This document shows positions 43,456 to 62,042 of a DNA stretch of 64,000 nt, piece after piece. Each line of letters begins with the position of its first letter. Position 1 is the first letter of the stretch. The DNA lies in contig JAJDZZ010000007.1 of assembly GCA_022824405.1 (NCBI GenBank), forward strand, positions 1 through 64,000, read 5' to 3'. This DNA comes from Opitutales bacterium. GTDB taxonomy: Bacteria; Verrucomicrobiota; Verrucomicrobiia; Opitutales; UBA2995. A program made the position numbers and the translations under genes. The notes under the pieces were generated by a model. That model was not told where the DNA came from, searched no databases, and worked only from the letters and a program-made list of their open reading frames with translations.

Positions 43456-44798
43456 CGTCGATCGCCGGCCTCCCGTCCGGAAAACATCTCGCTCAAAGCC
43501 GCCTTTCCCGAGCGCAACAGCAAATCGCGCAGGACCTCGTCCGACAGGGGATCGGCGGCGTCGTGGCGCTCCCGTAGCGGGAACCAAGAATCCTGCCGGG
43601 TGTATTCATCCAATCTGGCGCGCGCTCTGCCGAGAAGTTCCCTGGCTCGGTCATCGTCCCGTCCGAGCAGTAGCAAACGGCGGGCCAGAAGGGCGGCGGG
43701 GTCATCGCCCGACGCGATGTGCTCAAGGTCCAGATGCAACTCCATCGCGTCGACGATCCTGTTGAAGAAAATGACAGTGTCATTTACGGTGCGGTTCATG
43801 GAACGCCATCTATCGGTCGCGACCCACTTCCGGATGGCCTCATAGAAGGAACTCGAACCGGTAAGCCGCACGCGGAGACCGAGGGCGCGAGGCAGCGGCT
43901 GACCCATCTGCTCAAGTTTCCGGAGGTGTTGTTGCGACGCATCCAACAACCGGTCGGGCACATCCTCGACGTGCTCGATTCCGGTTATATCCACCTTCAT
44001 GCGCTCCCACCGCAAAGGGGCCAGGGGAATCTGCTCCAGGCCGATGCCGCCGTCATCGGAACCCTTCAGGAGCCAGGGGCCATGCGGCCCCGTTTCCGAA
44101 GAATCGAGCCCGACCAGCGAACCCAGATAGCCGCAAGGCCGCGAGCCGCCCGATCCCGATAGCCCTTCCAGCGACGGCTTGTGGATATGGCCCAGCAACC
44201 AAGCGTCGTAACCGGTATCGTTGAGTTCGGTCTGCCGGATGGGGGCATAGGGCCCACCGGAAGCGTCGAGATCGCCGTGCAGCAGGCCGATCCTTGGAAC
44301 CGGCGGCGAGGGCGCCTGCATCGGTTGGTTTAGCAACATTGCCACCGGACTCTGACGCACATATTGATCTCCGAAGGACCAGCCGACCACTTGGGCGCGA
44401 GGAATCCCGGCCTTTGCAACCGTTACCGGTTCCCACTTGCCACCTTTCCCCAAAAGCGTGAAACCATCGATCAACGCCGCCAGGCGCGGCAGCGCTTCAA
44501 AGTCATGATTGCCCGCCACCGCCATGACTTCGATTTCCCGGTCCAGCAATCGCCGAACGCTTTCTTCGAGAGGCGCCATGGCCTCGAATCGGGCATTATC
44601 CCCGTCAACGACGTCACCGGCAAACAGCACCGCGGCCACTCCCCTTTCGATGGCGAAATCGACGGCGCGCCGTAATGCCGCAGCAGGCGTGAGTTCGGAC
44701 GGGTCCGCCCCCCAGGATTTGATTTCGCCCGGCAATCCCGAACACGCCGTGCCCAGATGAACATCGCCGATGGCAAGAATCAGGGCGCCGTCGCTCAT
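43452..44798 (-). CDS. Mre11/SbcD/YhaO-like metallophosphoesterase
   Basis: A 448-residue calcineurin-like phosphoesterase. The dinuclear metal motifs are AIGDVHLG (Asp12, His14), LFAGDVVDG (Asp61), VAGNHDFEAL, GLLHGDLDASG and LLGHIHKPS, in that order and spacing as in DNA-repair exonucleases. The C-terminal 200 residues (from about 270) form a capping or partner-binding region with charged helices. It overlaps the ATPase gene by 4 nt, so the two subunits are made together. The pair resembles SbcCD or YhaO-YhaN, which cut DNA ends and hairpins. A spacer of 121 bp separates it from nuoN. Confidence 0.88.
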   Translation of the reverse strand: MSDGALILAIGDVHLGTACSGLPGEIKSWGADPSELTPAAALRRAVDFAIERGVAAVLFAGDVVDGDNARFEAMAPLEESVRRLLDREIEVMAVAGNHDFEALPRLAALIDGFTLLGKGGKWEPVTVAKAGIPRAQVVGWSFGDQYVRQSPVAMLLNQPMQAPSPPVPRIGLLHGDLDASGGPYAPIRQTELNDTGYDAWLLGHIHKPSLEGLSGSGGSRPCGYLGSLVGLDSSETGPHGPWLLKGSDDGGIGLEQIPLAPLRWERMKVDITGIEHVEDVPDRLLDASQQHLRKLEQMGQPLPRALGLRVRLTGSSSFYEAIRKWVATDRWRSMNRTVNDTVIFFNRIVDAMELHLDLEHIASGDDPAALLARRLLLLGRDDDRARELLGRARARLDEYTRQDSWFPLRERHDAADPLSDEVLRDLLLRSGKAALSEMFSGREAGDRR

Positions 44799-44919: not shown

Positions 44920-46422
44920 TCAAGGGTAGCTGAACCCGTAGCTTATGAAGTCGACCAGGACCATGGGAACGAGGCCGAGGCCCAGTACGAGGAGGGCGAG
45001 GATAACCAAACCGGCGCCCTCCAATTTGCTCAGTTTAATCGGGGACGGGCCGGGAGACTCATTTGAAACCAGGAAGGCTTTAAGCACTATGATGTAATAA
45101 TACAGGGAGACGGCGGACATGAGGAGGGCCACGGCGACCAGCCAGTAGAATCCGTCGCTCCAACCGGCGATTTCCGGACGTGAGCCAATGGCCGCCATGA
45201 AGAGATAAAGTTTCCCGAAGAAACCGGACAGGGGAGGAATGCCGGCCAGGGAAAGGATGAAGATCATAAAGAGAAAGCTGAGACCGGGATTTTTCTTCCA
45301 GCAACCGTTGAAATCCTTGATCAGGGCTTCGCGACCGAGGCGATGGCTGAGGATTCCGATAATGGCAAAGGCCCCCAAGGTGGCGGCGGCATAGACGACA
45401 CTGTAAAACAGTACCGATACGTTACCTTCCCGGTTGGCTGCTATCAAGCCGATGAGGATGTAGCCGGCATGGGCGATACTGGAGTAGGCCAGGAGGCGTT
45501 TGACGCAAGTTTGTCGGAGGGCGCCGATGTTACCCAGCACCATGCTGAGCAGGGAGATCAAAACGATCCCGATGATGAGGGTGTCGCGCTGGGCCGAGAA
45601 CTGCAGAACCGGCCCGAAAAGCTGGACCAACACGAAGAAGCTGGCAATTTTGGATCCCGTGGCAATCCATGCCGCTACCGGGACGGGGGCGCATTGATAA
45701 ACGTCGGGAGCCCAGAGATGAAAAGGGACGGCGGCAATCTTGAACCCCAGGCCCACCAACAGAAAAGTCGAGCCAATCCACAAGTAACCGGTCGGCACCG
45801 CACCGTTGTCCAGCGCGGCGACGATGGCGTCGAAAGCCAGGGCGTTGGTGGCGCCGTAGAGGTAGCTGATGCCAAAAAGCAGAAAAGCGGAGGATACCCC
45901 TCCAATGGCAAAATATTTTATGCCCGCCTCAACGGAATATCGTTGGGAATTTTGAAATGCGGTGAGTCCGTAGAGACTGAGGGATATCAGTTCTATGGAA
46001 ATAAAGAGCATCAGCAGGTTCTGGGCGGTAATGAGAAAGCCCATTCCCAAGGCGCTGAGGAGAAAGAGTCCGAAATATTCGCTGACGTGTTGGTTTGGGA
46101 CCTGGAATCTGGCAAACTGCAGGACAAACAAGGCCAGAGCAAAGACGAAGGCTTTGAACCCCAGGGTAAGGGGATTGAGGACGATCTGGCCCTCCCAGGT
46201 GTCTGCCGGAACAAGGGGACTACCCACGCCCGAACTCCATTGCCAAACCACCCCGGCTAGGGCCAGGAGCAGGGAGAGCGATGTAATCATGGCCACCTTG
46301 TCGCTACGGACCTCGACGGGGGAATGTTTGTATTTGGTGTAATCGACACCGAGAGCGGCAAACATTCCCAGGACCACGATCAGGTCCGGCCACGTGGCGA
46401 AAAATAATTGCGCGTATTGCAT
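44920..46422 (-). CDS. nuoN: NADH-quinone oxidoreductase subunit N (2M-type cluster)
   Basis: A 500-residue antiporter-like subunit from the ATG at 46422. A strong AGGAGGT at 46433-46439 sets this start; the open frame to 46551 lies inside nuoM. It has fourteen predicted transmembrane helices. The helix-5 Glu is in FISIELISLSLYG, and the helix-7 and helix-8 lysines are in VGLGFKIAAVPFHLW and ATGSKIASF. It forms a proton channel next to the quinone module. It is the last gene of the nuoABCDIHJKLMMN cluster. Confidence 0.93.
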   Translation of the reverse strand: MQYAQLFFATWPDLIVVLGMFAALGVDYTKYKHSPVEVRSDKVAMITSLSLLLALAGVVWQWSSGVGSPLVPADTWEGQIVLNPLTLGFKAFVFALALFVLQFARFQVPNQHVSEYFGLFLLSALGMGFLITAQNLLMLFISIELISLSLYGLTAFQNSQRYSVEAGIKYFAIGGVSSAFLLFGISYLYGATNALAFDAIVAALDNGAVPTGYLWIGSTFLLVGLGFKIAAVPFHLWAPDVYQCAPVPVAAWIATGSKIASFFVLVQLFGPVLQFSAQRDTLIIGIVLISLLSMVLGNIGALRQTCVKRLLAYSSIAHAGYILIGLIAANREGNVSVLFYSVVYAAATLGAFAIIGILSHRLGREALIKDFNGCWKKNPGLSFLFMIFILSLAGIPPLSGFFGKLYLFMAAIGSRPEIAGWSDGFYWLVAVALLMSAVSLYYYIIVLKAFLVSNESPGPSPIKLSKLEGAGLVILALLVLGLGLVPMVLVDFISYGFSYP

Positions 46423-46424
46423 GG

Positions 46425-47921
46425 TCAAAAGACCTCCTTTCCCGCCATGGCCAGGGCTTCCAAAATGGGCGCCAGGCTGGGTTCCAGGATGGAGGTCAGC
46501 AGAGGCGGATAGATTCCGATGGCCGTGACAATGGACAATAACATCCCACAACCGATTTTTTCAGGCAGGGTCATGGGCGCATACACGCCGTCCGAAACGG
46601 GGGCATCCGATTTTCCAAAGAAGGCCTCGTGGATCTTGACCAAAGTATAGGCAAAGGTGGCGAGGACCCCGATACCGGCTGTTACTATGATCCAAATGGA
46701 AAATCGGTCCTGGTTCCAGGCGCCGATCAGCACGTGAAGTTCCGCGACGAATCCGCTGAATCCGGGCAGGCCCATGGAGGCCAATCCGGCGACGACGAAC
46801 GTCCAACAAATTCCGGGCATGCGCTGAACCAGGTTGTGAAATTCGCCCAACTGCCGGGTTCGGGTGCGGGAGTAAACGACCGAGCCGACCAGGGCGAAAA
46901 GGAGGGCGCCGATGACTCCGTGGGAAAACATCTGCAGGGAGGCGCCCACCAGCCCCACTTCATTGAGCGTAGCCAAGCCTAACAAAACAAACCCCATGTG
47001 GCTCACGCTCGAATACCCGATCACGTACTTGAAATCGGTCTGAACGAGGGCGATAAGCGCGCCGTAGACAATATTGATTACGGCGATCCATCCCACCACC
47101 GGGGCCCAATATACCGCACCCTCGGGCAACAGGCCGATAGCTACGCGAAGGCAGCCGTAGGCCCCCAATTTCATAACCACTCCGGCCAGGAGCATGGAGG
47201 CGGCCGTCGGCGCCGCCACGTGCCCGGTGGGAGCCCAGGTATGGAAGGGCCACATGCCGGCCAGAATGCCAAAACCTACGAAGAGGACGGGAAATACCAC
47301 CATCTGGAACTTTGGGGAAAACTCCCCGGAGTGCATGAGCTGAACCAGGTCGAAAGTGTGTTGCCCGGAACCGTAGTAGATCGCGATCAATCCCAAAAGG
47401 GCCACAGCTGAGCCCACAAAGGAAAAAAGCACCAGTTTCATGGCCGCGTAGGTCCTCCTGCCGCTGCCCCAGATGGCGATGATAAAATACTTCGGAACGA
47501 TGGCCAGTTCGTAAAAGACAAAGAGCAGAAAGAGATCGAGGGAGAGGAATACGCCAAATACCCCCCCGATCAGGGCGAAATAATACGCGTAAAACTGGTT
47601 GGCCCTATCCTGGAGCGTCCAGGTAAACAACACACCGCAAACGGCCACAATCCCGGTCAGCATCAACAAAGCAATACTAAGACCGTCCACGCCGACTTTG
47701 AACTCCGCCCCGATGGCCGGAATCCAGGGAAGTTCGATCACGTTCCGGAATGTCCCCCCTTCCCCCAACTGGAACTGGGCGTAACAGACCAGCGAAACGG
47801 CTAAAGTCGACAACCCGGTGACCAGGGCGATACCCCGGATCAAACGATAGTGTTTTCCGGGAATCAACCCCAGGACAACGGCGCCGAGGTAACTGATTAT
47901 TACTGTGAGCAAGGCGGTCAT
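46425..47921 (-). CDS. nuoM: NADH-quinone oxidoreductase subunit M, second copy (NuoM2)
   Basis: A 498-residue antiporter-like subunit. Helix-5 Glu138 is in FVFYELAIVPKYF, the helix-8 Lys is in GVVMKLGAYG, and the helix-12 Glu is in GFVAELHVLIGAW. The helix-7 position that is Lys in E. coli NuoM (Lys234) aligns by eye with Leu220 in FGILAGMWPFHTW. Its sequence around WAPTGHVAAPTAASMLLAG is closer to the NuoM of the neighbouring cluster than to the other NuoM of its own cluster. It begins directly after the first nuoM and ends 2 nt before nuoN. Confidence 0.92.
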   Translation of the reverse strand: MTALLTVIISYLGAVVLGLIPGKHYRLIRGIALVTGLSTLAVSLVCYAQFQLGEGGTFRNVIELPWIPAIGAEFKVGVDGLSIALLMLTGIVAVCGVLFTWTLQDRANQFYAYYFALIGGVFGVFLSLDLFLLFVFYELAIVPKYFIIAIWGSGRRTYAAMKLVLFSFVGSAVALLGLIAIYYGSGQHTFDLVQLMHSGEFSPKFQMVVFPVLFVGFGILAGMWPFHTWAPTGHVAAPTAASMLLAGVVMKLGAYGCLRVAIGLLPEGAVYWAPVVGWIAVINIVYGALIALVQTDFKYVIGYSSVSHMGFVLLGLATLNEVGLVGASLQMFSHGVIGALLFALVGSVVYSRTRTRQLGEFHNLVQRMPGICWTFVVAGLASMGLPGFSGFVAELHVLIGAWNQDRFSIWIIVTAGIGVLATFAYTLVKIHEAFFGKSDAPVSDGVYAPMTLPEKIGCGMLLSIVTAIGIYPPLLTSILEPSLAPILEALAMAGKEVF

Positions 47922-49418
47922 CTACCGGGAAATCAGAAGTGTGAAGGATTCGACAAACGGAGCGCTGAAGGCCAACCAGGCGTCGGGAGCAACTCCTATC
48001 CAGACGGTGAGAACAAGTAAGGGAGAAATATAGAAGACCTCGCGGTAGGAAATGTCGGCCAATCCGGACCTGGACGGATGCACCGGTCCGGTAAAAAGAC
48101 GCTGGAGAATATTGAGCAGGAATACCGCCGTGGCCAGCAGGCCCAGCAAGGCCAGACCGGTATGCCAGGGCGCCAAGGCAAAGGCTCCGGTGAAAATCAG
48201 AATTTCGGCGGCGAACCCGGCCAGAAAAGGAAGGCCCAGAGATGAAAAAACGAGCAGGCCGAATACAAAAACGTAACGCGGCATTACCGAACCAAGGCCA
48301 CCGAATTCATGGATGTCCCGGCTGCCGGCGAGGATCTCAAGTTTTGCCGCCACGAAGAAGAGGCCGGAGATCCCGATTCCGTGGGCGAACATCTGGAGAA
48401 TGGCTCCCTGAATGGCGATGGCAGGGGCGTTCATCCCCTCCGGACTCGCCGCAGCGCCCAGGGCGAAGATGCCGAACATGCAGTAGGCCACGTGATTGAG
48501 TGAGGAGTAGGCCAGGACCCGTTTCAGATCCCGCTGGCGCAAGGCGATGAATGCTCCCCAAAGAAGGGTAATCAAGGCAAAGGCAAGCAATGTATCCGCA
48601 TAGGTGTGCATGGCCTCGGGAAAAACCGGAAGAACCAGGCGCAGAAACCCGTAAACCCCCATTTTCGACATGACGCCGGCCAGAATCATGCTCACCGGGA
48701 CCGGGGCCTCGGCATAAGCCGGGGCCTGCCAGGAGTGAAGAGGAAAAAGCGGCACTTTCACCCAAAGCCCGAGCATCACGGCGACAAAGATCGCGGTGTA
48801 GAAGCCACCGAGTTTGCCTGGAATGATTCCTTCGATGGCCAACCGACGCAGTTCGATAAAGTCGAAGGTGCCGGTGTGCAGGTAGAGGAAAAGCATGCCC
48901 AGCAACATGGCCACCGACCCCAAAATGGTGAAAATGAAGAAGTTCAGCGCCGCCTTGTGACACTTGGGGCCGCCATACAGTTTTATGAGGAAAAAGGCGG
49001 GAACCAAAGCCGCCTCCCAGAATATGAACCAGTGGAAGAAATTGAGCGCGGTGAAGGCTCCATAAAGGGCCGTGAACTGGACGGACAGAAGACTGAAGTA
49101 AGGTTTTTCCTTTCCCTCGATTCCCCGGGAAGCCAGGACTATTATAGGGGAAAGGATAGCCACCATCAGTACCAGCAACAGGTTCAGGCCGTCGAGCCCC
49201 ACAAAATAATCAACCCCTATGGAAGGGATCCATTCCTGTTTTTCCACGAACTGCAGGCCCTTACTGGAGACGAATCGAAGGGCCAGAGACAGGGTCAGAA
49301 CGGATGAAAGAAGCGAGCCGATCAGGGCGGTCAGCATGATCTGCCTGCGATTCCGGCCGGGAGACAAAACAATGACGAGGGCGGCCAGAAGGGGAATGAA
49401 TGTGATGGTCGTAATCAT
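47922..49418 (-). CDS. nuoM: NADH-quinone oxidoreductase subunit M, first copy
   Basis: 498 residues from the ATG at 49418 (MITTITFIPLLAAL). An ATG at 49430 is possible, and GATGGGG precedes the chosen codon. Key residues of a working proton channel are present: Glu135 in FIFWEAALVPAFF, Lys221 in LWVKVPLFPLHSW, a Lys in GVMSKMGVYG and a Glu in AGFAAEILIF. It lies between nuoL (gap 13 bp) and the second nuoM (adjacent). Two different NuoM genes in series are not present in ordinary complex I operons. Confidence 0.93.
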   Translation of the reverse strand: MITTITFIPLLAALVIVLSPGRNRRQIMLTALIGSLLSSVLTLSLALRFVSSKGLQFVEKQEWIPSIGVDYFVGLDGLNLLLVLMVAILSPIIVLASRGIEGKEKPYFSLLSVQFTALYGAFTALNFFHWFIFWEAALVPAFFLIKLYGGPKCHKAALNFFIFTILGSVAMLLGMLFLYLHTGTFDFIELRRLAIEGIIPGKLGGFYTAIFVAVMLGLWVKVPLFPLHSWQAPAYAEAPVPVSMILAGVMSKMGVYGFLRLVLPVFPEAMHTYADTLLAFALITLLWGAFIALRQRDLKRVLAYSSLNHVAYCMFGIFALGAAASPEGMNAPAIAIQGAILQMFAHGIGISGLFFVAAKLEILAGSRDIHEFGGLGSVMPRYVFVFGLLVFSSLGLPFLAGFAAEILIFTGAFALAPWHTGLALLGLLATAVFLLNILQRLFTGPVHPSRSGLADISYREVFYISPLLVLTVWIGVAPDAWLAFSAPFVESFTLLISR

Positions 49419-49431
49419 GGCATACCCCATC

Positions 49432-51438
49432 TCAACGGGCAAAAACGAGGAAAAGGACGCCCAGGATCACCGCTCCCAAGGCGACTATGCGGAGATAACC
49501 CTGAAGAAACCCGTTTTGAATAATAGCATTGAGTTGGCTGCTTTTGTAAATGCGGTCGCAGACGCCGTCGAAGGAGATCCGGTCGATCAATTTACAATCG
49601 ACGGTCTTGGAGAAGAATCCACCTGTAATCGTCACGAAACTCCTCACCGTCTCGACCAGGAAATGGAAGCCGGATTCCAGGAAAACGATCAGAAAAGCCG
49701 AACCTTTCCAAAGCCTGGTAACCGTAGCGGCGTAGAGTTCATCGACAAAAAAACGGTTTTCCATCCAGGAATATGGCGTGGGCAAGGAATCCTTGACGGG
49801 ATCGGTCGTATCCAATCCCAATTTGGAACCGCCGTAAACCAGGAGACCCAGGGCAATTCCTCCCAAGGCTATCACCCAACTGACAACCACCACGATCAGG
49901 GCGTGCTGATCCACCGCAAAACCGGACAGATAAGCGAGGATGTGGAAGAACTCCTCACTGACAATTCCCATCGCCAGGGAAAAGAGCGCCAGTATTACCA
50001 ATGGCGCCGTCATCAAGGCCGGGCATTGGCGAATCGAACCCCTCCCTCTGTAATCTCCCAGGAAAACGTAGCAGCACTGCCGGGTCATGTAAAACGCGGT
50101 GAGCAGAGAAGCGGCGGCGCTGATCCAGAAGACGGCGCCATGGGCCGTCCAGGCGCTGATCAAAATCTGGTCCTTACTGTAATACCCACTGGTGAAAGGA
50201 AAGGCGCAGAGAGCCAACGCCCCGGCCAGGTAACAGATGCTCGCTAACTTCATCCGGTTGAAAACACCGCCCATCAGGCGAATGTCCTGTTCGTGACGGC
50301 ATCCATGAATGATGGCGCCGGCCCCGAGGAACAGGAGGGCCTTGAAAAAAGCGTGGGTCAGGAGGTGGAAGATTCCGATGGATACCCCTCCCTCGCTCAG
50401 GGCCAGACCCCCGGCTCCCAGGCCCACCATCATCAGACCGAGTTGACTGACGGTAGAATAGGCCAAAATGCGTTTGATGTCGTATTGCCCGACCGCCACC
50501 AAAGCGGCAAAGAGCGCGGTGAGGGCGCCGACCCAGGAAACAATCGCCAGCGCCGTGGCATCGGCCAGGAAAAGCGGAAAGGCACGAGCCACCAGGAAAA
50601 CCCCCGCCGCCACCATGGTAGCGGCATGAATCAGAGCGGAAACCGGGGTGGGACCCTCCATGGCATCGGGCAACCACACGTGAAGCGGCAACTGCCCCGA
50701 TTTGCCCACCGCACCGATAAAGAGGAACAATGCGATTACTCCGGCGCCGTTTAAGCCGAAGAGCACATCCTTGGAGGCGATCAGGGCAGTGATCCGATCG
50801 CTCTCCAGCAGGCCCTGCCCCCCGTCGAAGAGTAGAAACGTAGAAGTGGCCTTAAAGGCCCAAAGCAACCCCAGGAGAAATCCCAGGTCCCCGATACGCG
50901 TGGTGATGAACGCTTTTTTCGCCGCCGCCGCCGCGCTGGGTTTTTGGAACCAGAATCCGATGAGGAGATAGGAGGCGAGTCCGACGATTTCCCAAAACAT
51001 GAAAAGCAGCAGAAGGCTGTTGGACATGACCAACCCCAGCATACCCACCATAAACAGGGAGAGGTAGCAGAAGAACCGCGTCATACCCGGATCGCGGCTC
51101 ATGTAACTGGTGGAATAGAGAAAAATCAATAGGCCGACAAAGGTGACCATGGCCAGCATGGCGCCGGTCAGGGGATTGAGCACAACTCCGAATTCCAGGT
51201 TTACCCCGGCCACCTGAATCCAGGTAAAATTGGCGGTCAGGGCGCTGGCTTCCGGGCCCCAGGTCATGGAAAAGGCCCGGATGGACAGAAGAAGGGAAGC
51301 CGACAGAGCCGCATTGGCCACCGCCGCGGCAAATTTGCCAGAGGGATTGAAAAATCCCAGCCATACCGTTGCCATTAGTGGAAACAGCGGAATCCACCAT
51401 AACCACCCAACCGAATGCGAAAAATCAAACAGGTTCAT
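49432..51438 (-). CDS. nuoL: NADH-quinone oxidoreductase subunit L with long lateral helix
   Basis: A 668-residue distal antiporter subunit. Glu150 in LFMFWEIVGLASYLL and Lys246 in IGAVGKSGQLPLHVWLPD are the helix-5 and helix-7 charges. The C-terminal part after FFVDELY (residue 563), which includes the amphipathic lateral helix and last transmembrane helix, is 106 residues long. The corresponding part in the neighbouring NuoL is 80. A longer lateral helix is what would be needed to span one extra antiporter subunit. It overlaps nuoK by 4 nt. Confidence 0.94.
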   Translation of the reverse strand: MNLFDFSHSVGWLWWIPLFPLMATVWLGFFNPSGKFAAAVANAALSASLLLSIRAFSMTWGPEASALTANFTWIQVAGVNLEFGVVLNPLTGAMLAMVTFVGLLIFLYSTSYMSRDPGMTRFFCYLSLFMVGMLGLVMSNSLLLLFMFWEIVGLASYLLIGFWFQKPSAAAAAKKAFITTRIGDLGFLLGLLWAFKATSTFLLFDGGQGLLESDRITALIASKDVLFGLNGAGVIALFLFIGAVGKSGQLPLHVWLPDAMEGPTPVSALIHAATMVAAGVFLVARAFPLFLADATALAIVSWVGALTALFAALVAVGQYDIKRILAYSTVSQLGLMMVGLGAGGLALSEGGVSIGIFHLLTHAFFKALLFLGAGAIIHGCRHEQDIRLMGGVFNRMKLASICYLAGALALCAFPFTSGYYSKDQILISAWTAHGAVFWISAAASLLTAFYMTRQCCYVFLGDYRGRGSIRQCPALMTAPLVILALFSLAMGIVSEEFFHILAYLSGFAVDQHALIVVVVSWVIALGGIALGLLVYGGSKLGLDTTDPVKDSLPTPYSWMENRFFVDELYAATVTRLWKGSAFLIVFLESGFHFLVETVRSFVTITGGFFSKTVDCKLIDRISFDGVCDRIYKSSQLNAIIQNGFLQGYLRIVALGAVILGVLFLVFAR

Positions 51439-51749
51439 TCCTTCAGGTCCTGGATCGACTCCGGATCGATCGTTTTGTAGTGGCGAAAGATAGCCAGCAC
51501 CAAGGCCAATCCGAGAGCCGCTTCAGTAGCGGCAATGGCGATGGCAAAGAGGGTGAACAACGGCCCGTGCAAGGGTAACGGATTGGGGCTGAAATGCCAG
51601 AATGCGATCAGGTTGAGATTGGCCGAGTTCAACATGATCTCCAGACAGATCAGCATTATGATGATATGCCGACGCGTCAGGGCGCCCACCAAACCGATGG
51701 AAAACAGAATGGCGGAAAGGATCAGGAAATGGTGCAACGTCAATCCCAT
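51435..51749 (-). CDS. nuoK: NADH-quinone oxidoreductase subunit K
   Basis: A 104-residue three-helix membrane subunit: MGLTLHHFLILSAILFSIGL, the Glu of helix 2 in MLICLEIMLNSANLNL (two conserved acidic/carboxamide positions), and a Glu-containing ATEAALGLALVLAIFRHY. It links the quinone module to the antiporter arm and contributes half of a proton channel. It is tightly packed between nuoJ (2-bp gap) and nuoL (4-bp overlap). Confidence 0.95.
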   Translation of the reverse strand: MGLTLHHFLILSAILFSIGLVGALTRRHIIIMLICLEIMLNSANLNLIAFWHFSPNPLPLHGPLFTLFAIAIAATEAALGLALVLAIFRHYKTIDPESIQDLKE

Positions 51750-51751
51750 GG

Positions 51752-52300
51752 TCAGGTATTGGGATAATTGGGGCGATTTGCCGGAACGGTCTTTTTTTGG
51801 TCGGCCTCACTGGCTCCGGTTGCCGCCACTACCGCGCCAATCAGGCCGGCCGTGAGCAACAGGGCTATTACCCCAACGGAGGCGAAGTAGGGATCCATCA
51901 GGACCATTCCGAGTTGTTTCACGGATGGATTGAAGTCGGAGAGCGGGGTTGGCGTTTGGCCGCCGGTTCGGGAAATGAGGGGCAATAGGACACCCGCAAG
52001 CAAGGCGATAACGGCCAATCCGCCCCAAACCCAGCCACGGGATCGGACCGGGCGGTTGGGATCGCCCATCACATTGGTAGTGAGCATGATGGCGAAAAGC
52101 ATGAGGATTCCCACCGAACCGATATAGACCAGCACCTGAACGGCGGCGATGAACTCGGCCAACATCAGGAGAAAGAGACCGGCCAGGGCGGAGAAGAACA
52201 ACAACACGGAAAAAACGGCGTGAACGACATTGCGCAAGGTGATGGCCAAACCGGCGCCCAGAACGGCGACCAGGGCGAGTAGGTAAAAGGCGATATTCAT
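51752..52300 (-). CDS. nuoJ: NADH-quinone oxidoreductase subunit J
   Basis: A 182-residue membrane subunit with five helices. RNVVHAVFSVLLFFSALAGL and EFIAAVQVLVYIGSVGILMLF are the family core. The latter includes the pi-bulge Tyr-Ile-Gly region of helix 3 that couples quinone reduction to pumping. The C-terminal 25 residues are polar (ASEADQKKTVPANRP). The start overlaps the nuoH stop by 4 nt. Confidence 0.94.
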   Translation of the reverse strand: MNIAFYLLALVAVLGAGLAITLRNVVHAVFSVLLFFSALAGLFLLMLAEFIAAVQVLVYIGSVGILMLFAIMLTTNVMGDPNRPVRSRGWVWGGLAVIALLAGVLLPLISRTGGQTPTPLSDFNPSVKQLGMVLMDPYFASVGVIALLLTAGLIGAVVAATGASEADQKKTVPANRPNYPNT

Positions 52301-53520
52301 TCCACTAGTTGGTAAACGCGTTTGCTCCGCATAATGGGGGACTGGTTAAGCCGACTGAGCGCCGTAGCGGCAAGCTGCAAGGCGCCGAAACCGAGTATCC
52401 AACCGGCAAGCATGGCAATGGCCGTTCCCCATTGCCGTTCAATAAAATGATAAAAGCCCGCCAGGAATATGTTGAGGATGGCCAACGGGAAGAGAAACTT
52501 CCAGGCGTAACCCATCAATTGGTCGACCCGGAGACGGGGAAGGGTGCCGCGAATCCAGATCATGACGGCGAAAAGACTGAAGAGCTTGAGGACAAACCAG
52601 GGAAGTCCGGAAAATACCGGCCCGTTCCAACCGCCCAGGAAGAGGGTCACGCCAATGCCGGCGATGGCGAAGGCGCTGATGTATTCTCCCATGAAGAAGA
52701 TGGCGTATTTAAATCCGCTGTATTCGGTGAGATGGCCGGCAATGATTTCGGAATCCGCCTCGGGCAAATCGAAAGGGGAACGGTTGGCCTCGGCCAGCGC
52801 GGCGACGAAAAAGAAGATAAAACCGGCAAACCCCCAAGGTTTGAATACGTTCCAGCCGAGAATTCGGCCAAAGAATTCCTGAAGGATATTTCCGCTGCCC
52901 ACCCAGGAGGAAATCTGCTGGGAGGCCACTACCTCCTGGGCATTGAGCGAACCGGCTATCATTATGACGGCGACGGCGGACAATACCAGGGGGATTTCGT
53001 AGCTGATCATTTGCGCCACCGCACGCATTCCTCCGAGCAGGGAGTACTTGTTGCGGGAAGACCATCCCGCCATAAAAACCGCGATGGTATTCAAGGAACT
53101 GATGGCAAAGAAAAAGATGATGGCGGAATCGAGCGGCAAGGCGTGGAGCCCATCACCCAAGGGCAGAAAACCGACCCCGATCAGGGCGGGAATCATCAGC
53201 ATGATGGGGGCCAGAAAATGGAAGAGCTTGTCGGATCGTTCCGGAACGATATCCTCCTTGATCAACATCTTAATGCCGTCGGCAATCGGTTGAAGCAGGC
53301 CGAAAATACCTACCCGATTCGGACCGGGCCGGTTCTGGATGCGGGCCAGCCCCTTTCGTTCCAACCAAGTGGTAAAAGCGAAGGCTCCCATAAAGGACAA
53401 GGCCAGGGGCAAAGTGCACAAAAGTAGGTGGACGACTAATTTGAGCGACGGGAAATCGGCGAAGAAAGCCTCTATCCATCGGCCCAGTTCAACCAGTTTG
53501 AGATCGAAAAAATTATTCAC
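52297..53520 (-). CDS. nuoH: NADH-quinone oxidoreductase subunit H
   Basis: A 407-residue membrane subunit with eight or more helices that forms the quinone entry chamber with NuoB and NuoD. ERKGLARIQNRPGPNRVGIFG and MISYEIPLVLSAVAV are the signature loops, and FDLPEADSEIIAGHLTEYSGF carries the conserved acidic cluster. It follows nuoI in this cluster (order D-I-H-J), with the start inside the last 8 nt of nuoI. Confidence 0.95.
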   Translation of the reverse strand: MNNFFDLKLVELGRWIEAFFADFPSLKLVVHLLLCTLPLALSFMGAFAFTTWLERKGLARIQNRPGPNRVGIFGLLQPIADGIKMLIKEDIVPERSDKLFHFLAPIMLMIPALIGVGFLPLGDGLHALPLDSAIIFFFAISSLNTIAVFMAGWSSRNKYSLLGGMRAVAQMISYEIPLVLSAVAVIMIAGSLNAQEVVASQQISSWVGSGNILQEFFGRILGWNVFKPWGFAGFIFFFVAALAEANRSPFDLPEADSEIIAGHLTEYSGFKYAIFFMGEYISAFAIAGIGVTLFLGGWNGPVFSGLPWFVLKLFSLFAVMIWIRGTLPRLRVDQLMGYAWKFLFPLAILNIFLAGFYHFIERQWGTAIAMLAGWILGFGALQLAATALSRLNQSPIMRSKRVYQLVE

Positions 53521-54160
53521 TCTTTTCGGGTTGGGGTGGTTTTTCCCGGGCGGGAGGGGATTTCTTCAGGCGAGATGGCGGCCTTTTGGCTTTGGCGGCG
53601 GCCAACCGGGTTTTCTTTTGGCGGGCCTTTTTCTTGGCTTCGGCCAAGGCGTTTTTGGCGGCGATACGGTCGTCTGTTTCCCTTGCTTCCACGGGGTTGA
53701 GTGCGTGGTAGTAGTCGTTGGATTTGAGAAGATCGCCGCGGTTGATGAGCAGGCCCTCGAAGCGGTTCTCGTTGGAGAGTTCGAAGGCGCTGTCCATGCG
53801 AATGGCTTCGTAAGGGCACACTTCGACACAAAGTTGACAGCTCATGCAGACGGATGTGTCGATGTCGAAAATCCGTGGGCGCAGGATGGGCTTTCCCTTT
53901 TCATCCTTGTCCTTGATGATGTAAATGCATTGGGGCGGACAAGCTCTTTCACACAGGGTGCAGGCGGTACAGCGCATGCCGTCGACCGCGTCGTCGCCAT
54001 CGTAGAGGAGGAAGGGAAAGTTTCGCGTAAATGGGGTTATGGTGGATTTCTCCTCGGGGTACTGGACGGTGGGAAGACGCTCCTTCCGGTAATAACTCTG
54101 GAAGAAGTTCTTGGCCGTTACCGCCATTCCTTTGAGGATACCTTTCGCTAACAAGCTCAT
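53513..54160 (-). CDS. nuoI: NADH-quinone oxidoreductase subunit I with basic C-terminal tail
   Basis: A 215-residue ferredoxin-like subunit with two 4Fe-4S motifs: Cys64, 67, 70, 74 (CTACTLCERAC) and Cys105, 108, 111, 115 (CMSCQLCVEVC). These are clusters N6a and N6b, which pass electrons to NuoB. Residues about 165-215 are a Lys/Arg/Ala/Pro-rich tail absent from the neighbouring NuoI (179 aa). Without NuoE, F and G in the cluster this subunit would be the surface-exposed electron entry, so the tail could help dock an acidic donor such as ferredoxin (inference). Confidence 0.94.
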   Translation of the reverse strand: MSLLAKGILKGMAVTAKNFFQSYYRKERLPTVQYPEEKSTITPFTRNFPFLLYDGDDAVDGMRCTACTLCERACPPQCIYIIKDKDEKGKPILRPRIFDIDTSVCMSCQLCVEVCPYEAIRMDSAFELSNENRFEGLLINRGDLLKSNDYYHALNPVEARETDDRIAAKNALAEAKKKARQKKTRLAAAKAKRPPSRLKKSPPAREKPPQPEKSE

Positions 54161-54184
54161 AACGCTGCAGGGGAAATTCTCATC

Positions 54185-55336
54185 TCAGCGGTCGACCTCC
54201 CCCAGCACGATGTCGATGCTCCCGAGTATGATCACGGCGTCGGCCACTTTATGGCCCAGGCACATGTGGCGAAGAGCGGTGAGGTTGACGAAGGACGGCG
54301 GACGGACTTTGAAACGATAGGGGATGGGAGTGCCGTCGGAAATGAGGTAGAAACCGAGTTCGCCCTTGGGGGCTTCGATGCGACCGTAGGCTTCTCCCGG
54401 AGCCGGTCGGAAAATTTTGGGCGCCTTACCCATGATATTACCATCGGGCAAATCCCGGATGGCCTGTTTGAGGATCTTTACACTTTCCCGCATCTCGAGC
54501 ATTCGGACCATGAAGCGATCGTAACAATCCCCATGCCCGCCAATGGGAATCTTGAAATCGAAGCGGTCGTAAATGCCGTAGCGGTCGACTTTGCGAATAT
54601 CGTAATTGACGCCGCTGGCACGGAGCATGGGACCGGTGAGGCTGAAGTCGATGGCTTCCTCCCGGGTCACTACTCCCACGTTCTGAGCGCGGGCTATGAT
54701 AATCTCGTTCTCGGTCAGGAGGGTTTCATATTCATCGAGAAAGGCGGGAAAGGCGTCGACAATCCGCTGGCACTCCCCCAACCAGCCTTCGGGCAGATCG
54801 CAGCGAACACCTCCGAACCGGATGTAGTTTACCATCATGCGGGCTCCGCTCAGGACTTCGAATAGATCGAGGATTTTCTCGCGTTCGCGCAAGGCGTAAA
54901 GAAGGGGAGTTCCGAGGGCGCCCAAGTCGTTGATGAAGAATCCGATGAGGAGGCAGTGGTTGACCAGGCGGGTGAGTTCACCGACAATAACGCGAAGGTA
55001 TTCGGCCCTTTCGGGAACCTCGATTTCAATCAGTTTTTCAGCGCTCAGGGCATAGGCCCAATTATTGGTCATTCCACACAGGTAATCCAGGCGGTCGGTA
55101 AACGGCATGGACATCGGGTAGGAAATGTCCTCGGCGATTTTTTCGTGGTTGCGGTGCAGGTATCCGAAAACCGGTTTCAGATCCACTACGGTTTCCCCAT
55201 CGAGTTTCAGATCCATACGGAAGACCCCATGGGTGGAGGGGTGGTGGGGCCCCATGGCCACCTCGAGAATATCGGCCCCCAACTCGTCTTTGCTGAGGTG
55301 GTAACCGCGAGGAGGCATTGTTTGGACGGGGCTCAT
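54185..55336 (-). CDS. nuoD: NADH-quinone oxidoreductase subunit D
   Basis: A 383-residue 49-kDa-type subunit. The quinone-site region [20 protein letters not shown] includes the conserved His, and [20 protein letters not shown] the Tyr loop. The C-terminus ends [14 protein letters not shown], the usual form in complex I. It is separate from nuoC, which overlaps its start by 4 nt. The next gene downstream is nuoI (24-bp gap); nuoE, nuoF and nuoG are missing at the place where they usually stand. Confidence 0.95.
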
Positions 55337-55923
55337 GGCGATTGTCCCTCCAATTCCTCGCGCCTTTCCCTGGCGCGTTGCAGAACGTCCCCGTGAGGAG
55401 TAGGTTCGTATTCGTAGTCATTGGGAGGGACGTAATCCTTGCGCATCGGATGGTGTTGAAAAGCCTCCCACATGAGGATGCGACGGAGGTCGGGATGACC
55501 TGTAAAGTGAATGCCGAAGAGGTCGTAGACCTCCCGTTCCATTAATTCGGCCCCCCGGTAATGGGGAGTGAGGGAGGTGACCACCGGGTTTTCCCGGGAA
55601 TGGACGCGCTGTTTCAAAATGAAGGGTCCGGTTTTCTTCTCCATGGAATAGAAATGGTACACCACCTCCATTTTTTCCGGGGAAAGGCTGGTCTTGACCA
55701 CCATTTTTCCCGCCTCGTTGCGGACTCTGGTTTTTTCTTCCTTCTCGAGGTAATCGACGCCGGAAACACAACTTAGATAATCCAGGCGATAGGCGGGATC
55801 CTCTTTCAGCCAGGATACCACCTCGTCCACCCTTTCCGGGGACAGGATAAGGCTTCCCGAAAAATCGTCCCATTCGAGTTCGGGAAACCGTCGGATTACC
55901 CCTTGATGGTCTATAGCGCCCAT
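55333..55923 (-). CDS. nuoC: NADH-quinone oxidoreductase subunit C
   Basis: About 196 residues if started at the ATG at 55923 ([17 protein letters not shown]). The open frame from 55992 would overlap nuoB by 28 nt and add 23 residues. It is the 30-kDa-type subunit: [18 protein letters not shown] and the signature [21 protein letters not shown] (split here as [12 protein letters not shown] and [17 protein letters not shown]). It contacts NuoD and NuoB in the peripheral arm. The stop overlaps the nuoD start. Confidence 0.93.
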
Positions 55924-55964
55924 ATACCCAATCGTCGTCTCAATGGTTATAGCGGTCGGGTCGC

Positions 55965-56642
55965 CTATCGGGCCGGTCTCCCTTTGGGGCATCCGTCCTC
56001 TACATTGGGGTTAGCGGTCGGAGGTGTCCAAACATCCGGATTGAAGGGAGGAACAAGATCATCGCCCTTCAGTTCGGGCACCGGATAAACCCGCCTGCCA
56101 TCCGCATAGGCTGGATTGGTAATGTTTCTTCCCAGGGATTTTTGTCGTTTGATTTTCTCCTGAAGGGTCATCAAGGAGTGGAGCAGGGCCTCCGGACGGG
56201 GGGGGCATCCGGGAAGGTATACATCGACGGGGATGTACCGGTCGATCCCCTTCAGCACGTTGTATCCTTGTTTGAAGGGTCCCCCCGATATGGCGCAGGC
56301 ACCCATTGCGATGACATACTTGGGCTCGGGCATCTGATTGTAGATCCGCACCACTTGCGGGGCCATTTTTTTGGTAACCGTTCCCGAAACGATCATGAGG
56401 TCGGACTGCCTGGGGGAAGGTCGAAACACCTCGGCTCCGAAACGTGCTATGTCGTGGCGCGACCCGGCCGTGCCTATCATCTCGATGGCGCAGCAGGCCA
56501 ACCCGAATTGCAGGGGCCATACCGAATTGCTCCGGCTCCAATTATAGATCCAGTCCAGCGAGGATAGAATAACCCCGGCTTTTGCGGTCGCCTCGGGTGA
56601 GAGGTCGACTTCTTTACGATCTGACAACTCGGGAGAGTTCAT
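55965..56642 (-). CDS. nuoB: NADH-quinone oxidoreductase subunit B
   Basis: A 225-residue subunit holding the terminal cluster N2. The ligands are the tandem Cys50-Cys51 ([13 protein letters not shown]), Cys116 ([11 protein letters not shown]) and Cys146 ([12 protein letters not shown]). It reduces quinone at the interface with NuoD and NuoH. The C-terminal 50 residues are Pro-rich and less conserved. It lies between nuoA (4-bp gap) and nuoC. Confidence 0.95.
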
Positions 56643-56646
56643 TGCG

Positions 56647-57012
56647 TTATTTCCATTCCAGGCAGCCTTTGAGCCATAAGTAAACCAAACTTTCGGCCAT
56701 GATTAAAATAAAGATCCCCATGGCCAGAAATCCGCCAAAACCGATGTCGGTAAACGCGGTTGCCCATGGGTAAATAAAAACGGCCTCGATATCGAAAATT
56801 ACAAAGACCAGGGCGTAGAGGTAGTATTGCATCTTGAACTTTCCCCATGCTTCCCCGGTCGATTCCAAACCGCACTCGTAGGTTGCCTGCTTCAAGGCGC
56901 TCGGTTTCTTCGGGCAAATCAACCTCGCGATAAGGATGGGAGTGCAGGCCAGGACCAAACCGGCTACGGCAAAGGCCACCAGGGTCATGTAATCGATCCA
57001 GATAGAGGACAT
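56647..57012 (-). CDS. nuoA: NADH-quinone oxidoreductase subunit A
   Basis: A 121-residue subunit with three helices. [20 protein letters not shown] contains the conserved Cys-Gly loop (E-C-G) that closes the quinone cavity, and [18 protein letters not shown] holds the conserved Asp-Glu pair. The start at 57012 is preferred to a frame on the same strand at 57049 that is in another phase. It begins 41 bp after nuoN of the upstream cluster, so the two clusters may share a transcript. Confidence 0.95.
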
Positions 57013-58592: not shown

Positions 58593-60146
58593 TTACTCCC
58601 TGTCGGGGTCCGGTTCCTCTGCCTGGGAAACGACAGCGATTACAGGGGAAAAGTTATCCCCCAGGGTTTTGTTCATCTCGTCGGTGAAAAGGCGGGGCCA
58701 AAACCCGGTAAGGATCAAAGCCGCCAGCAACACCAGCGCCGGCAACTTTTCGGCCATGGTGATATCCTTGACCTCATTATGCTTGAGATAATCGGCAAAG
58801 GCTTCCGAGGGTGGACCGAAAAAGATCCGGGCGATGGCCCGCAATCCGTAAACCGCGGATATGATGAGGCCCAATGCCGCCATGACCACAAAGGGCACGT
58901 GATAGTCCCACAGAGCCAAAAATATGGCAAATTCACCCCAGAAGTTGAGGAGGCCGGGTCCGGGCAGGGCCACACTGGCCAGTACCGCCGCGGAAAAAAG
59001 AGCGGCCAGGACCGGGGCCCGTCTGACCAACCCGCCCATATCCTCCATATTGAAGGTGTCGGTCCGGCGGTAGACGACGTGACCGAGCAGAAACAACAAA
59101 GCCACTGTCAACCCATGTGCCACCATCAGGATCACCACGCCGCCGGCGCCTAGAACGGACAGGCAGGCGACCCCCAAAAAACAGTAACCCATGTGCATCA
59201 CCGAACTGTAGCCGATCATCTGTTTCAGGTCCCGTTGGGCCAGGGTGACAATACCGATGATCACCACGCTGCCAAGGGCCAGCCAGCACATTTCCTCCCT
59301 CCAATGGAGGGCGCCCAGTGGAACCAGAGGCAGCGCCACCTGGAGCAATCCATACAAACCGAATTTCTTTAAAACGCCGGCGTGGAGCATCGCCACGGAT
59401 GTAGGAGCCGCGCCATAGCCTCGTGGCGCCCAGGAATAAAAGGGAAACAGGGATACCAGAATTCCGAATCCGAAGAGCAATAAGGCGAATATGATTTGCT
59501 GTGCCTCACCTTCGAGCGGGGCGCTGCTCAAAAACGATTTCAGCGTAATCATGTCAAAGGAATCGACTCCGCTTTTGAAACAGATGGCGAGCAGTCCCAC
59601 CAGGGAAATCATGGCCCCCAAGGTGAGGTAAACGGCGATTTCCATGGCGGCGATGTGACGATCCCGTCCACCCCAAACACCAATGCAGATGAAAGTCGGA
59701 ATGAGGGCCAATTCGTGGAAGAAGTAGAAAAAGAATACGTCCACCGAGGCGAACATTCCCATCGACCCGGACTGCATGAACAGCAACAGCATGAGGTACG
59801 GGCGTTGCGGCCGGGCCTCGCTTTGCAGGGCGTAGCTTCCGGCTGCGCAACCCACGATTCCAGCCAGGACGAACAACGGCATGGATAGACCGTTCAACCC
59901 CAGTTTGAGGGTTATGCCCAAGCCTTCCAGACCCGTGTCGAATGAACACAGGTAATCGTAGCCCGATGGGTCGATCGGTTGAAAATTCGACCACAGGACG
60001 AGAGAGGCCAAGGCGGGAAAAAAGAATCCTGCGGTGGCGAGGAACCGGACGGTCCTGAGGGATAGTTTACGGCCCACCAGCAGAATTAGGGCCATGGACA
60101 GCGGCAGGATTATCGCATTGAGAAGGAGTATATTATAACTGTTCAT
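58593..60146 (-). CDS. nuoM: NADH-quinone oxidoreductase subunit M (upstream cluster)
   Basis: A 517-residue antiporter-like subunit. Glu145 lies in YFFHELALIPTF and the helix-12 Glu in NFWGEFAIFLALW. In FGILVSLFPFYSW the position equal to the E. coli helix-7 Lys is Leu230, as in the second NuoM of the other cluster. A helix-8 Lys pair (GVLKKFGLYG) is present. The C-terminal 20 residues are acidic (SQAEEPDPDRE). It is located between nuoL and nuoN. Confidence 0.93.
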   Translation of the reverse strand: MNSYNILLLNAIILPLSMALILLVGRKLSLRTVRFLATAGFFFPALASLVLWSNFQPIDPSGYDYLCSFDTGLEGLGITLKLGLNGLSMPLFVLAGIVGCAAGSYALQSEARPQRPYLMLLLFMQSGSMGMFASVDVFFFYFFHELALIPTFICIGVWGGRDRHIAAMEIAVYLTLGAMISLVGLLAICFKSGVDSFDMITLKSFLSSAPLEGEAQQIIFALLLFGFGILVSLFPFYSWAPRGYGAAPTSVAMLHAGVLKKFGLYGLLQVALPLVPLGALHWREEMCWLALGSVVIIGIVTLAQRDLKQMIGYSSVMHMGYCFLGVACLSVLGAGGVVILMVAHGLTVALLFLLGHVVYRRTDTFNMEDMGGLVRRAPVLAALFSAAVLASVALPGPGLLNFWGEFAIFLALWDYHVPFVVMAALGLIISAVYGLRAIARIFFGPPSEAFADYLKHNEVKDITMAEKLPALVLLAALILTGFWPRLFTDEMNKTLGDNFSPVIAVVSQAEEPDPDRE

Positions 60147-60161
60147 TCACCGTCTCCTTCC

Positions 60162-62042
60162 TCAAAGAATCCCAAATGCGATAGCTCCCAAAATGAGCGC
60201 CCCGGCGGCAAACCAGTAGACGTAAGCGTGAATGCTGCCCAAGTGCAGCGAGCGGCCGAGAATTCCGAGCAGACCCACTATCCCCGCCACACCGCGCACC
60301 ATGAGGCCGTGGATAAGCAGTCGGTCCAGAAGAAAACTCAGCCCCTGGGAAAACGGGTCCTGGACCTTTTTCACATACCAGTCGTAGGCATCGTCGATAT
60401 ACAACCTGGCCGCCAAGGCTCGGAACAGGCCGGGCAGTTTGGCCTCCAAGGCATCCGTTCCCCTTTGGGGATTCCACACCCACCAGGCAATGAGGATGCC
60501 CCCCAAGGATAAAAGAGAGCCGGAAACGATCGTGTAGGTCCCGAAGGAACTTCCCCCCGTTGGTTGTCGGGGAATGATCCCTTCGAAGAAGTCGCCAAAG
60601 AACCAACCGTACCCACCGATGGCGGAAAGCACACCAAGAACCAGCAGGGGAACGGTCATGGAAAGGCCGGTTTCCTCCGCGCTTTCGGCTTGGTGCGATC
60701 GCGGTTTTCCAAAAAAAGTCACCAGGTAGAGCCTGCCCAGGTAGAGACCGGTCAAGGCTGCCGTGACCAATAGAATGATGTAGACGGGAAAATTCTCTTC
60801 CTTCGCCAGATGGAGAATAGCGTCCTTGCTGAAAAATCCGGACAAAAAGGGAAATCCTCCCATGGCCAATAGCCCCAGGGTAAAGGTGGCAAAGGTCAGC
60901 TTCATCCGGCTGGACAAACCACCCAGTTGGAAAATATCCCGCCCATGCCCGCAGGCGTGAAGGATGGACCCGGCATTCAAAAAGAGTAAGGCTTTGCCAA
61001 ACCCGTGAGTGGTAAGGTGGAACATGGCCGCCGCCGCTCCGGCGGTCACCGCCAACTGGCCTCCCTCCCCCCGGGTCCCGTCCTGTCCTCCCAACCCCAG
61101 CGCCGCCACCATGTAACCGAGTTGGGAAAGGGTGGAAAACGCCAAAATCTTCTTGATATCCTTCTGGCCGAAGGCGACGAGGGCGGCAAATACCGCGGTT
61201 ATGGTTCCAACCCACAGGATCACCTGCAACGCCCCCGAGGTCATGAGGAAATGAACCCGAGCGGTAAAATAAATCCCTGCCGCCACCATGGTCGCGGCAT
61301 GGATCAAGGCGGAGATAGGAGTCGGGCCCTCCATGGCATCGGGCAACCATACGTGGAGGGGCATTTGGGCCGATTTTCCCAACACCCCGCAAAACAACAA
61401 TAACCCCATGGATGTGGAAATCATCCCCGGTCGAGCTCCGGCTATGGCCTCCAATTCCACCAGGTCGAAAGTCCCGAACTGCCCGTAGATATACAGAATA
61501 CCCAACAAAAGACCGAAGTCCCCTACCCGGTTTACCACAAAAGCTTTTTTGGAAGCCGAAACGGCGGAGGGCCGATCGTAGTAATGGTTGATCAGCATGT
61601 AGGAACTGAATCCGACCAATTCCCAAAAAATAAACAGCAGAACCAGGTTGTCGGCCAAAATAATTCCCGACATGGAGAACATGAAAAAGGAAAGTCCGGC
61701 GAAAAACCGCGCCTTCCCCGGATCGCCTTTCATGTAACCCAGGCTGAATACCTGGACCAGAAATCCCACCACGATCAGAACCAGCAACATGAGGGCGGCG
61801 AGGTCGTCGAAATTCGCCCCGACCTCGAAGGACAAGCCCTCCCCCAGGGAGAACCAGGCATGGGCCCAGGTAAACCGAGCCCCCCCGTAGATCAACCACA
61901 GTCCGAGAATGGAAAAAACAGCGCCCGAGATTACCGACAATAACGAGGCCACCCGGTGCAGCCTGCGCAGGAAGCAGGCGATGATTCCCGCCGTGGCCAA
62001 CGGCAGGAGCAATAGTATCTGGGATAGGGTCGCGGCTTCCAT
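60162..62042 (-). CDS. nuoL: NADH-quinone oxidoreductase subunit L (upstream cluster)
   Basis: A 626-residue distal antiporter subunit of normal length. The helix-5 Glu is in LFIFWELVGFSSYML and the helix-7 Lys in GVLGKSAQMPLHVW. The lateral-helix and last-helix part after LYIDDAY (residue 547) is 80 residues, 26 fewer than in the NuoL at 49432-51438. That makes it a useful internal control for the downstream cluster. Confidence 0.94.
   Translation of the reverse strand: MEAATLSQILLLLPLATAGIIACFLRRLHRVASLLSVISGAVFSILGLWLIYGGARFTWAHAWFSLGEGLSFEVGANFDDLAALMLLVLIVVGFLVQVFSLGYMKGDPGKARFFAGLSFFMFSMSGIILADNLVLLFIFWELVGFSSYMLINHYYDRPSAVSASKKAFVVNRVGDFGLLLGILYIYGQFGTFDLVELEAIAGARPGMISTSMGLLLFCGVLGKSAQMPLHVWLPDAMEGPTPISALIHAATMVAAGIYFTARVHFLMTSGALQVILWVGTITAVFAALVAFGQKDIKKILAFSTLSQLGYMVAALGLGGQDGTRGEGGQLAVTAGAAAAMFHLTTHGFGKALLFLNAGSILHACGHGRDIFQLGGLSSRMKLTFATFTLGLLAMGGFPFLSGFFSKDAILHLAKEENFPVYIILLVTAALTGLYLGRLYLVTFFGKPRSHQAESAEETGLSMTVPLLVLGVLSAIGGYGWFFGDFFEGIIPRQPTGGSSFGTYTIVSGSLLSLGGILIAWWVWNPQRGTDALEAKLPGLFRALAARLYIDDAYDWYVKKVQDPFSQGLSFLLDRLLIHGLMVRGVAGIVGLLGILGRSLHLGSIHAYVYWFAAGALILGAIAFGIL

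What the first reader, a model, noticed from the sequence alone, without database searches (positions are those of the whole stretch)
49432..49752. NuoL of the 2M cluster has a lateral-helix region 26 residues longer than its neighbour
From the aligned FFVDELY / LYIDDAY motif to the C-terminus I count 106 residues here and 80 in the NuoL at 60162-62042. Twenty-six residues of alpha helix are about 39 angstroms, roughly the width of one antiporter-like subunit. This is the structural change expected if a fourth antiporter subunit is inserted between NuoL and NuoN, and it supports the extra nuoM being part of the complex.
Basis: partly seen in the sequence, partly recalled or inferred. Interest (0 to 1): 0.75.

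Follow-up and report, generated by a model that had tools for sequence, protein, structure and literature searches.

The report
Long-helix NuoL of 2M complex I
The proton-pumping subunit NuoL encoded here has a lateral "strap" helix one 26-residue unit longer than its neighbour's, as in the known "2M" respiratory complex I that carries a second NuoM pump subunit; the feature is real and published, but the long strap also occurs in complexes with only one NuoM, so it does not by itself prove an extra pump.

Summary
From FFVDELY/LYIDDAY to the C-terminus the two NuoLs have 106 and 80 residues. AlphaFold models put the extra residues in the lateral helix HL (79 vs 52 helical residues), not in a loop or an added transmembrane helix. 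This is the 2M complex I of Chadwick et al. 2018; a later paper credits that work with a similar NuoL insertion, so the finding is a member of a known kind.

Additions here:
(1) HL length is bimodal: all 49 two-nuoM clusters examined are long, none short.
(2) The extension is one unit: short HLs have a conserved acidic residue at +22 from the DELY Asp, long HLs at +22 and +48. In 11 of 12 long-HL, one-nuoM clusters the two units are recognisable 26-residue repeats; in the window itself they are not.
Twelve long-HL clusters have a single nuoM, and three of those genomes show no other antiporter-like gene. A long HL accompanies 2M but is not diagnostic.
(4) The two NuoMs fall on opposite sides of an old split, so they are not recent tandem copies. 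The second lacks the TM7 lysine (Leu in 49/49), so "one extra proton" is unproven.

The parts
49432..51438 (-). nuoL of the 2M cluster, 668 aa
   Evidence: NCBIfam TIGR01974 549.9 bits (cut-off 407.5) and PRK06590 581.9 (556); key residues E150, K246, H271, K366, K422 match E. coli NuoL E144, K229, H254, K342, K399
49519..49755 (-). lateral helix HL, residues 562-640 (helices 562-621 and 623-640 in the AlphaFold model)
   Evidence: the canonical neighbour has one 52-residue helix, 548-599
49597..49677 (-). approximate site of the extra 26-residue unit: from E588 (+22 from the DELY Asp) to D614 (+48), the two positions of the conserved acidic residue; the exact edges cannot be fixed
49438..49506 (-). 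C-terminal transmembrane anchor after HL, residues 645-667
   Evidence: hydropathy above 1.6
47922..49430 (-). first nuoM (K-type), probable ATG start at 49430, just after the nuoL stop
   Evidence: TIGR01972 408.8 bits (cut-off 263.8); TM7 lysine K229 in the 506-aa ORF numbering
46425..47921 (-). second nuoM (L-type), directly abutting the first
   Evidence: TIGR01972 438.7 bits; L220 in place of the TM7 lysine; E138, K251 and E394 kept
44920..46551 (-). nuoN of the 2M cluster (ORF as listed; true start probably further in)
   Evidence: TIGR01770 367.4 bits
51435..57012 (-). rest of the 2M cluster: nuoA (56647-57012), B, C, D, I, H, J, K (51435-51749); no nuoE, F or G
   Evidence: D, I and H matched; same order in five family relatives
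60162..62042 (-). nuoL of the neighbouring one-nuoM complex I, 626 aa, short HL (the comparison)
   Evidence: TIGR01974 515.4 bits; model
58593..60146 (-). single nuoM of the neighbouring complex (L-type, L230)

Best explanation
This is NuoL of a 2M-type complex I. Its lateral helix HL is one ~26-residue unit longer, so that the helix can run past two NuoM subunits instead of one and still place its C-terminal transmembrane anchor at the far end of the antiporter row. Shown here: the longer tail, its modelled position in the helix, its fixed length, the second copy of the conserved acidic position 26 residues on, and its constant presence in two-nuoM clusters. Inferred: that the unit packs on the second NuoM, that all four antiporter-like subunits are in one complex, and that HL acts as a strap rather than a driver. 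The second NuoM is not a recent tandem copy: it belongs to a NuoM class without the TM7 lysine, while the first is of the E. coli-like class. Whether it adds a full extra proton per cycle is open.
For: Tail lengths. HL helix 79 vs 52 residues. Bimodal length, 49 two-nuoM clusters all long. Acidic position +22 in the short class (83% D/E) and at both +22 (85%) and +48 (86%) in the long class; C-terminal motif mostly at +50 vs +75. Average self-similarity of long HLs peaks at lag 26 (13.3, against -9.1, 0.5 and -9.0 at lags 25, 27 and 28); the short class shows no such peak. 26-residue repeat at p<0.01 in 11 of 12 long-HL one-nuoM clusters. In the family relatives HL length is unchanged although its first half falls to 30-40% identity in four of five while the core stays at 76-79%. 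In E. coli the HL kink at P564-N566 is the NuoM contact, and truncations that remove the last TM helix leave negligible quinone reductase activity (PMC3274701); E. coli D563 lies beside it, at +21. Contiguous gene order in relatives. Literature on 2M (PMC9040806, PMC6606698).
Against: Long HL also occurs with a single nuoM (12 clusters). In the window's own NuoL the 26-residue repeat is not detectable (p=0.5), so duplication there is inferred from relatives. On the NuoL tree the two traits change only 4-5 times and the independent-pairs test has too few pairs to be significant, so Fisher p=5e-15 overstates the support. HL is modelled as a free chain with pLDDT about 50-65 over much of residues 610-650.
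Confidence: 0.82

Rival explanations
1. The long HL is an older feature of this NuoL lineage, present before the second NuoM joined; it made room later used by the second NuoM but did not arise for it. In one-nuoM complexes the extra unit packs elsewhere or bulges.
For: Twelve one-nuoM clusters with long HL in Omnitrophota, Zixibacteria, Coatesbacteria, Riflebacteria, Armatimonadota, Bacillota and Chloroflexota. Most of them branch outside the two-nuoM NuoLs in the core tree, and their single NuoM is K-type like the first NuoM of 2M. PMC9040806 reports similar insertions in other complexes of Manganitrophaceae.
Against: Tree support around these nodes is moderate (80-93, SH-aLRT only, midpoint root). 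Loss of the second nuoM from a 2M ancestor would give the same pattern, and L053 and L074 look like such losses. It concerns origin and can be true together with the strap function.
Confidence: 0.4
2. The second NuoM is built in but is not a full pump: without the TM7 lysine it is a spacer or uses another proton route, so stoichiometry does not simply rise by one.
For: Leu at the E. coli K234 position in 49/49 second NuoMs, Lys in 48/48 first NuoMs scored. No new conserved charged residue in the L-type class obviously replaces it.
Against: The L-type is the only NuoM in 28 of 32 short-HL one-nuoM clusters, including the window's other complex I, so it probably works. Glu TM5, Lys TM8 and Glu TM12 are kept.
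Confidence: 0.25
3. The second nuoM product is not part of this complex and works alone or in another complex.
For: No protein-level evidence exists for this organism.
Against: Abutting genes, the same L-M-M-N order in the sampled Verrucomicrobiota, Acidobacteriota and Chloroflexota clusters, and NuoM family membership.
Confidence: 0.05
4. The extra residues form a loop or an added transmembrane helix outside HL.
For: One-residue break in the modelled helix at 622 and low pLDDT nearby.
Against: Continuous helices 562-621 and 623-640. The sampled 19-residue hydropathy windows starting at 556-641 peak at 1.31 and no window reaches 1.6 before residue 643.
Confidence: 0.03

Closest known systems
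2M complex I (Chadwick et al. 2018, ISME J 12:2668; paper not held, known through citing papers)
   Same: two nuoM genes between nuoL and nuoN, and a NuoL with a lengthened HL (PMC9040806, PMC6606698)
   Different: host is probably Verrucomicrobiota, order Opitutales or near (inferred from relatives); the cluster keeps nuoH and lacks nuoEFG, whereas the N. moscoviensis clade 3 cluster lacks nuoE, F and H
Complex_I_3 of Ca. Manganitrophaceae (PMC9040806)
   Same: 26-residue insertion in HL, there in the MrpD2 subunit
   Different: that complex has five pumping subunits with two MrpD-like ones; here NuoL, two NuoM and NuoN
E. coli complex I (NuoL, PDB 3RKO and later)
   Same: same fold and key residues
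   Different: HL about 26 residues shorter, one NuoM

Membership tests
2M complex I | two nuoM genes between nuoL and nuoN | tested here: met
2M complex I | insertion of about 26 residues in the NuoL lateral helix | tested here: met
2M complex I | four antiporter-like subunits assembled in one complex | not testable with these tools
   needs protein work or a multi-chain model
2M complex I | more protons pumped per electron pair | not testable with these tools
   inferred in the literature; the second NuoM lacks the TM7 lysine
NuoL (TIGR01974) | score above the curated cut-off and the key ionisable residues | tested here: met
   549.9 vs 407.5 bits; residues
MrpA/MrpD antiporter | score above the curated cut-offs of Mrp models | tested here: not met
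   best Mrp model score 275.3 against a cut-off of 1104

The most novel reading that the evidence does not exclude
The lateral helix is a modular ruler: one 26-residue unit with one conserved acidic position per NuoM-like subunit. The unit was duplicated before the second NuoM joined, and 2M complexes arose by bringing together NuoMs of two anciently separate classes (with and without the TM7 lysine) rather than by tandem duplication.
Probability: 0.35. Interest if true: 0.6.

Novelty: new member of a known kind. Interest (0 to 1): 0.4.

Why it matters
A complex with four antiporter-like subunits tests how complex I couples over distance and what sets its proton count. Two points bear on inferences made from genomes: a long HL alone does not show a fourth pump subunit, and the added NuoM belongs to a class lacking a lysine held to be essential in E. 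coli (general knowledge), so the usual count of one more proton needs measuring.

Tried and rejected
Loop or extra-TM reading: rejected by the model and hydropathy. Reading the second nuoM as a recent tandem copy: rejected, 31.7% identity to its neighbour and opposite sides of the NuoM split. L059 looked like a natural switch from 2M NuoL to short HL, but identity drops abruptly near residue 270, in a highly conserved stretch; a MAG misassembly is likely, so it was left out of the final count. The NuoN tree was too poorly resolved to show the partner of the second NuoM. A substitute charge for the TM7 lysine was sought and not found. Foldseek rmsd rises to 10 A when HL is included, also for the canonical model, so HL placement in free-chain models was not interpreted.

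Full report
Observation. The NuoL at 49432-51438 (-) is 668 aa and that at 60162-62042 (-) 626 aa. Between the conserved Asp and the conserved Tyr near the last helix the gap is 82 against 57 (D566/Y648, D550/Y607), so 25 of the 26 lie between the anchors.

Identity. NuoL scores 549.9 bits with TIGR01974 (cut-off 407.5) and 581.9 with PRK06590 (556); both nuoM genes pass TIGR01972. Key ionisable residues of E. coli NuoL are conserved. The cluster reads nuoA-B-C-D-I-H-J-K-L-M-M-N. It has no nuoEFG; the only NuoF (Complex1_51K) in the genome lies upstream in the neighbouring complex I. Five family relatives carry the same 2M cluster with NuoL 72-92% identical over the full 668 residues.

Structure. 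AlphaFold2 from 55 related sequences gives mean pLDDT 87.3, with HL as helices 562-621 and 623-640 and the final anchor at 645-667. The canonical neighbour (18 sequences, pLDDT 79.8) has one HL helix, 548-599, and an anchor at 605-625. The difference of 27 helical residues is the insertion. No 19-residue window before residue 643 is hydrophobic enough for a transmembrane helix in the HL region. Fold comparison returns known NuoL/ND5/NdhF chains. HL was modelled without its partners and with lower confidence near its end.

How general it is. 80 related loci, 20 regions from the same phylum and five from the family were parsed for the number of nuoM genes before nuoN. After removing one chimera, 49 clusters with two nuoM have the long HL and none the short; 31 with one nuoM are short and 12 with one nuoM are long. 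The Asp-to-Tyr distance is 52-57 or 81-85, with no intermediates. Fisher gives p=5e-15, but the rows are related. The NuoL tree needs only 5 changes of HL and 4 of nuoM number, and independent pairs are too few for significance.

What was added. A conserved acidic residue sits 22 residues after the DELY Asp in both classes, and again at 48 in the long class (86%). Self-similarity of long HLs peaks at lag 26. In one-nuoM long HLs the repeat is plain, e.g. WVDQKLVDGTVNLVGIIT and LFDTYIVDGCVNLVGTVT in L042; 11 of 12 are significant, against 9 of 49 two-nuoM sequences, and the window's own is not. Duplication of one unit is therefore well supported for the class and inferred for the window. In E. 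coli the HL kink at P564-N566 is the contact with NuoM (PMC3274701), next to D563, which lies at +21. The simplest mechanism is that the added unit supplies a second NuoM contact. That step is inferred. In the family relatives HL keeps its length while its first half falls to 30-40% identity in four of five, against a core at 76-79%, as expected for a strap whose length matters more than its sequence.

Long HL with a single nuoM occurs in several phyla. In G006, G008 and G012 the search found only one NuoL, one NuoM and one NuoN (completeness of these assemblies is not given). PMC9040806 noted similar insertions in other complexes of Manganitrophaceae. A long HL is thus a regular companion of 2M, not proof of it. 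In the tree most one-nuoM long-HL NuoLs lie outside the 2M group, which suggests that the long HL came first, with moderate support.

The two NuoMs. They share 31.7% identity. Every first NuoM scored has Lys at the E. coli K234 position (48/48), every second has Leu (49/49). One-nuoM long-HL clusters have Lys (12/12), one-nuoM short-HL clusters Leu in 28 of 32. The NuoM tree needs one change at this site, so the pair brings together two old classes. Both keep Glu TM5, Glu TM12 and, with one exception, Lys TM8. Whether the second NuoM pumps a full proton is unknown; its class serves as the sole NuoM in many complexes, so it is probably functional.

Known or new. The 2M complex with lengthened NuoL is published (Chadwick et al. 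2018, cited in PMC9040806, PMC6606698, PMC11636273). This is a new member. I found no held paper describing the 26-residue unit structure, the spread of long HL in one-nuoM complexes beyond Manganitrophaceae, or the K/L split of the two NuoMs, but the original paper could not be read, so novelty of these points is uncertain.

Noticed in passing
window 46425-47921, 47922-49442, 58593-60146: Two NuoM classes: the first NuoM of the 2M pair has the TM7 lysine, the second and the other complex's NuoM have Leu; the pattern is fixed across 49 two-nuoM clusters.
   Followed up: partly
L042, L046, L051, L053, L055, L060, L067, L072, L074, L079, L080, L082: One-nuoM clusters whose NuoL has the long HL; L051 and L072 also have extra C-terminal sequence after the anchor.
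   Followed up: partly
L059 nuoL, about residue 270: Chimeric NuoL: 2M-type before and one-nuoM type after a highly conserved stretch, 83-100% identical to L018 up to the break (97-100% over residues 91-300); probably a MAG misassembly, possibly recombination.
   Followed up: partly
window 44920-57012 and L121: The 2M cluster has no nuoEFG and the genome has a single NuoF, in the neighbouring complex I; electron input to the 2M complex (shared module or ferredoxin) is unknown.
   Followed up: partly
L122:10764-17240: Mrp-type Na+/H+ antiporter genes (three antiporter-like subunits plus B and C) beside lipA/lipB on contig C11.
   Followed up: no
L178, M1 ORFs at 8678 and 8953: The first nuoM in the closest relative (G128) is split into two frames; sequencing error or a broken gene.
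   Followed up: no
window 39976-44798: Large AAA ATPase-like ORF (1203 aa) and a metallophosphoesterase-like ORF (448 aa) downstream of nuoN, looking like a nuclease pair; by eye only.
   Followed up: no
L016: Record titled Klebsiella pneumoniae MAG groups with Verrucomicrobiota in the NuoL tree, so the label is probably wrong.
   Followed up: no
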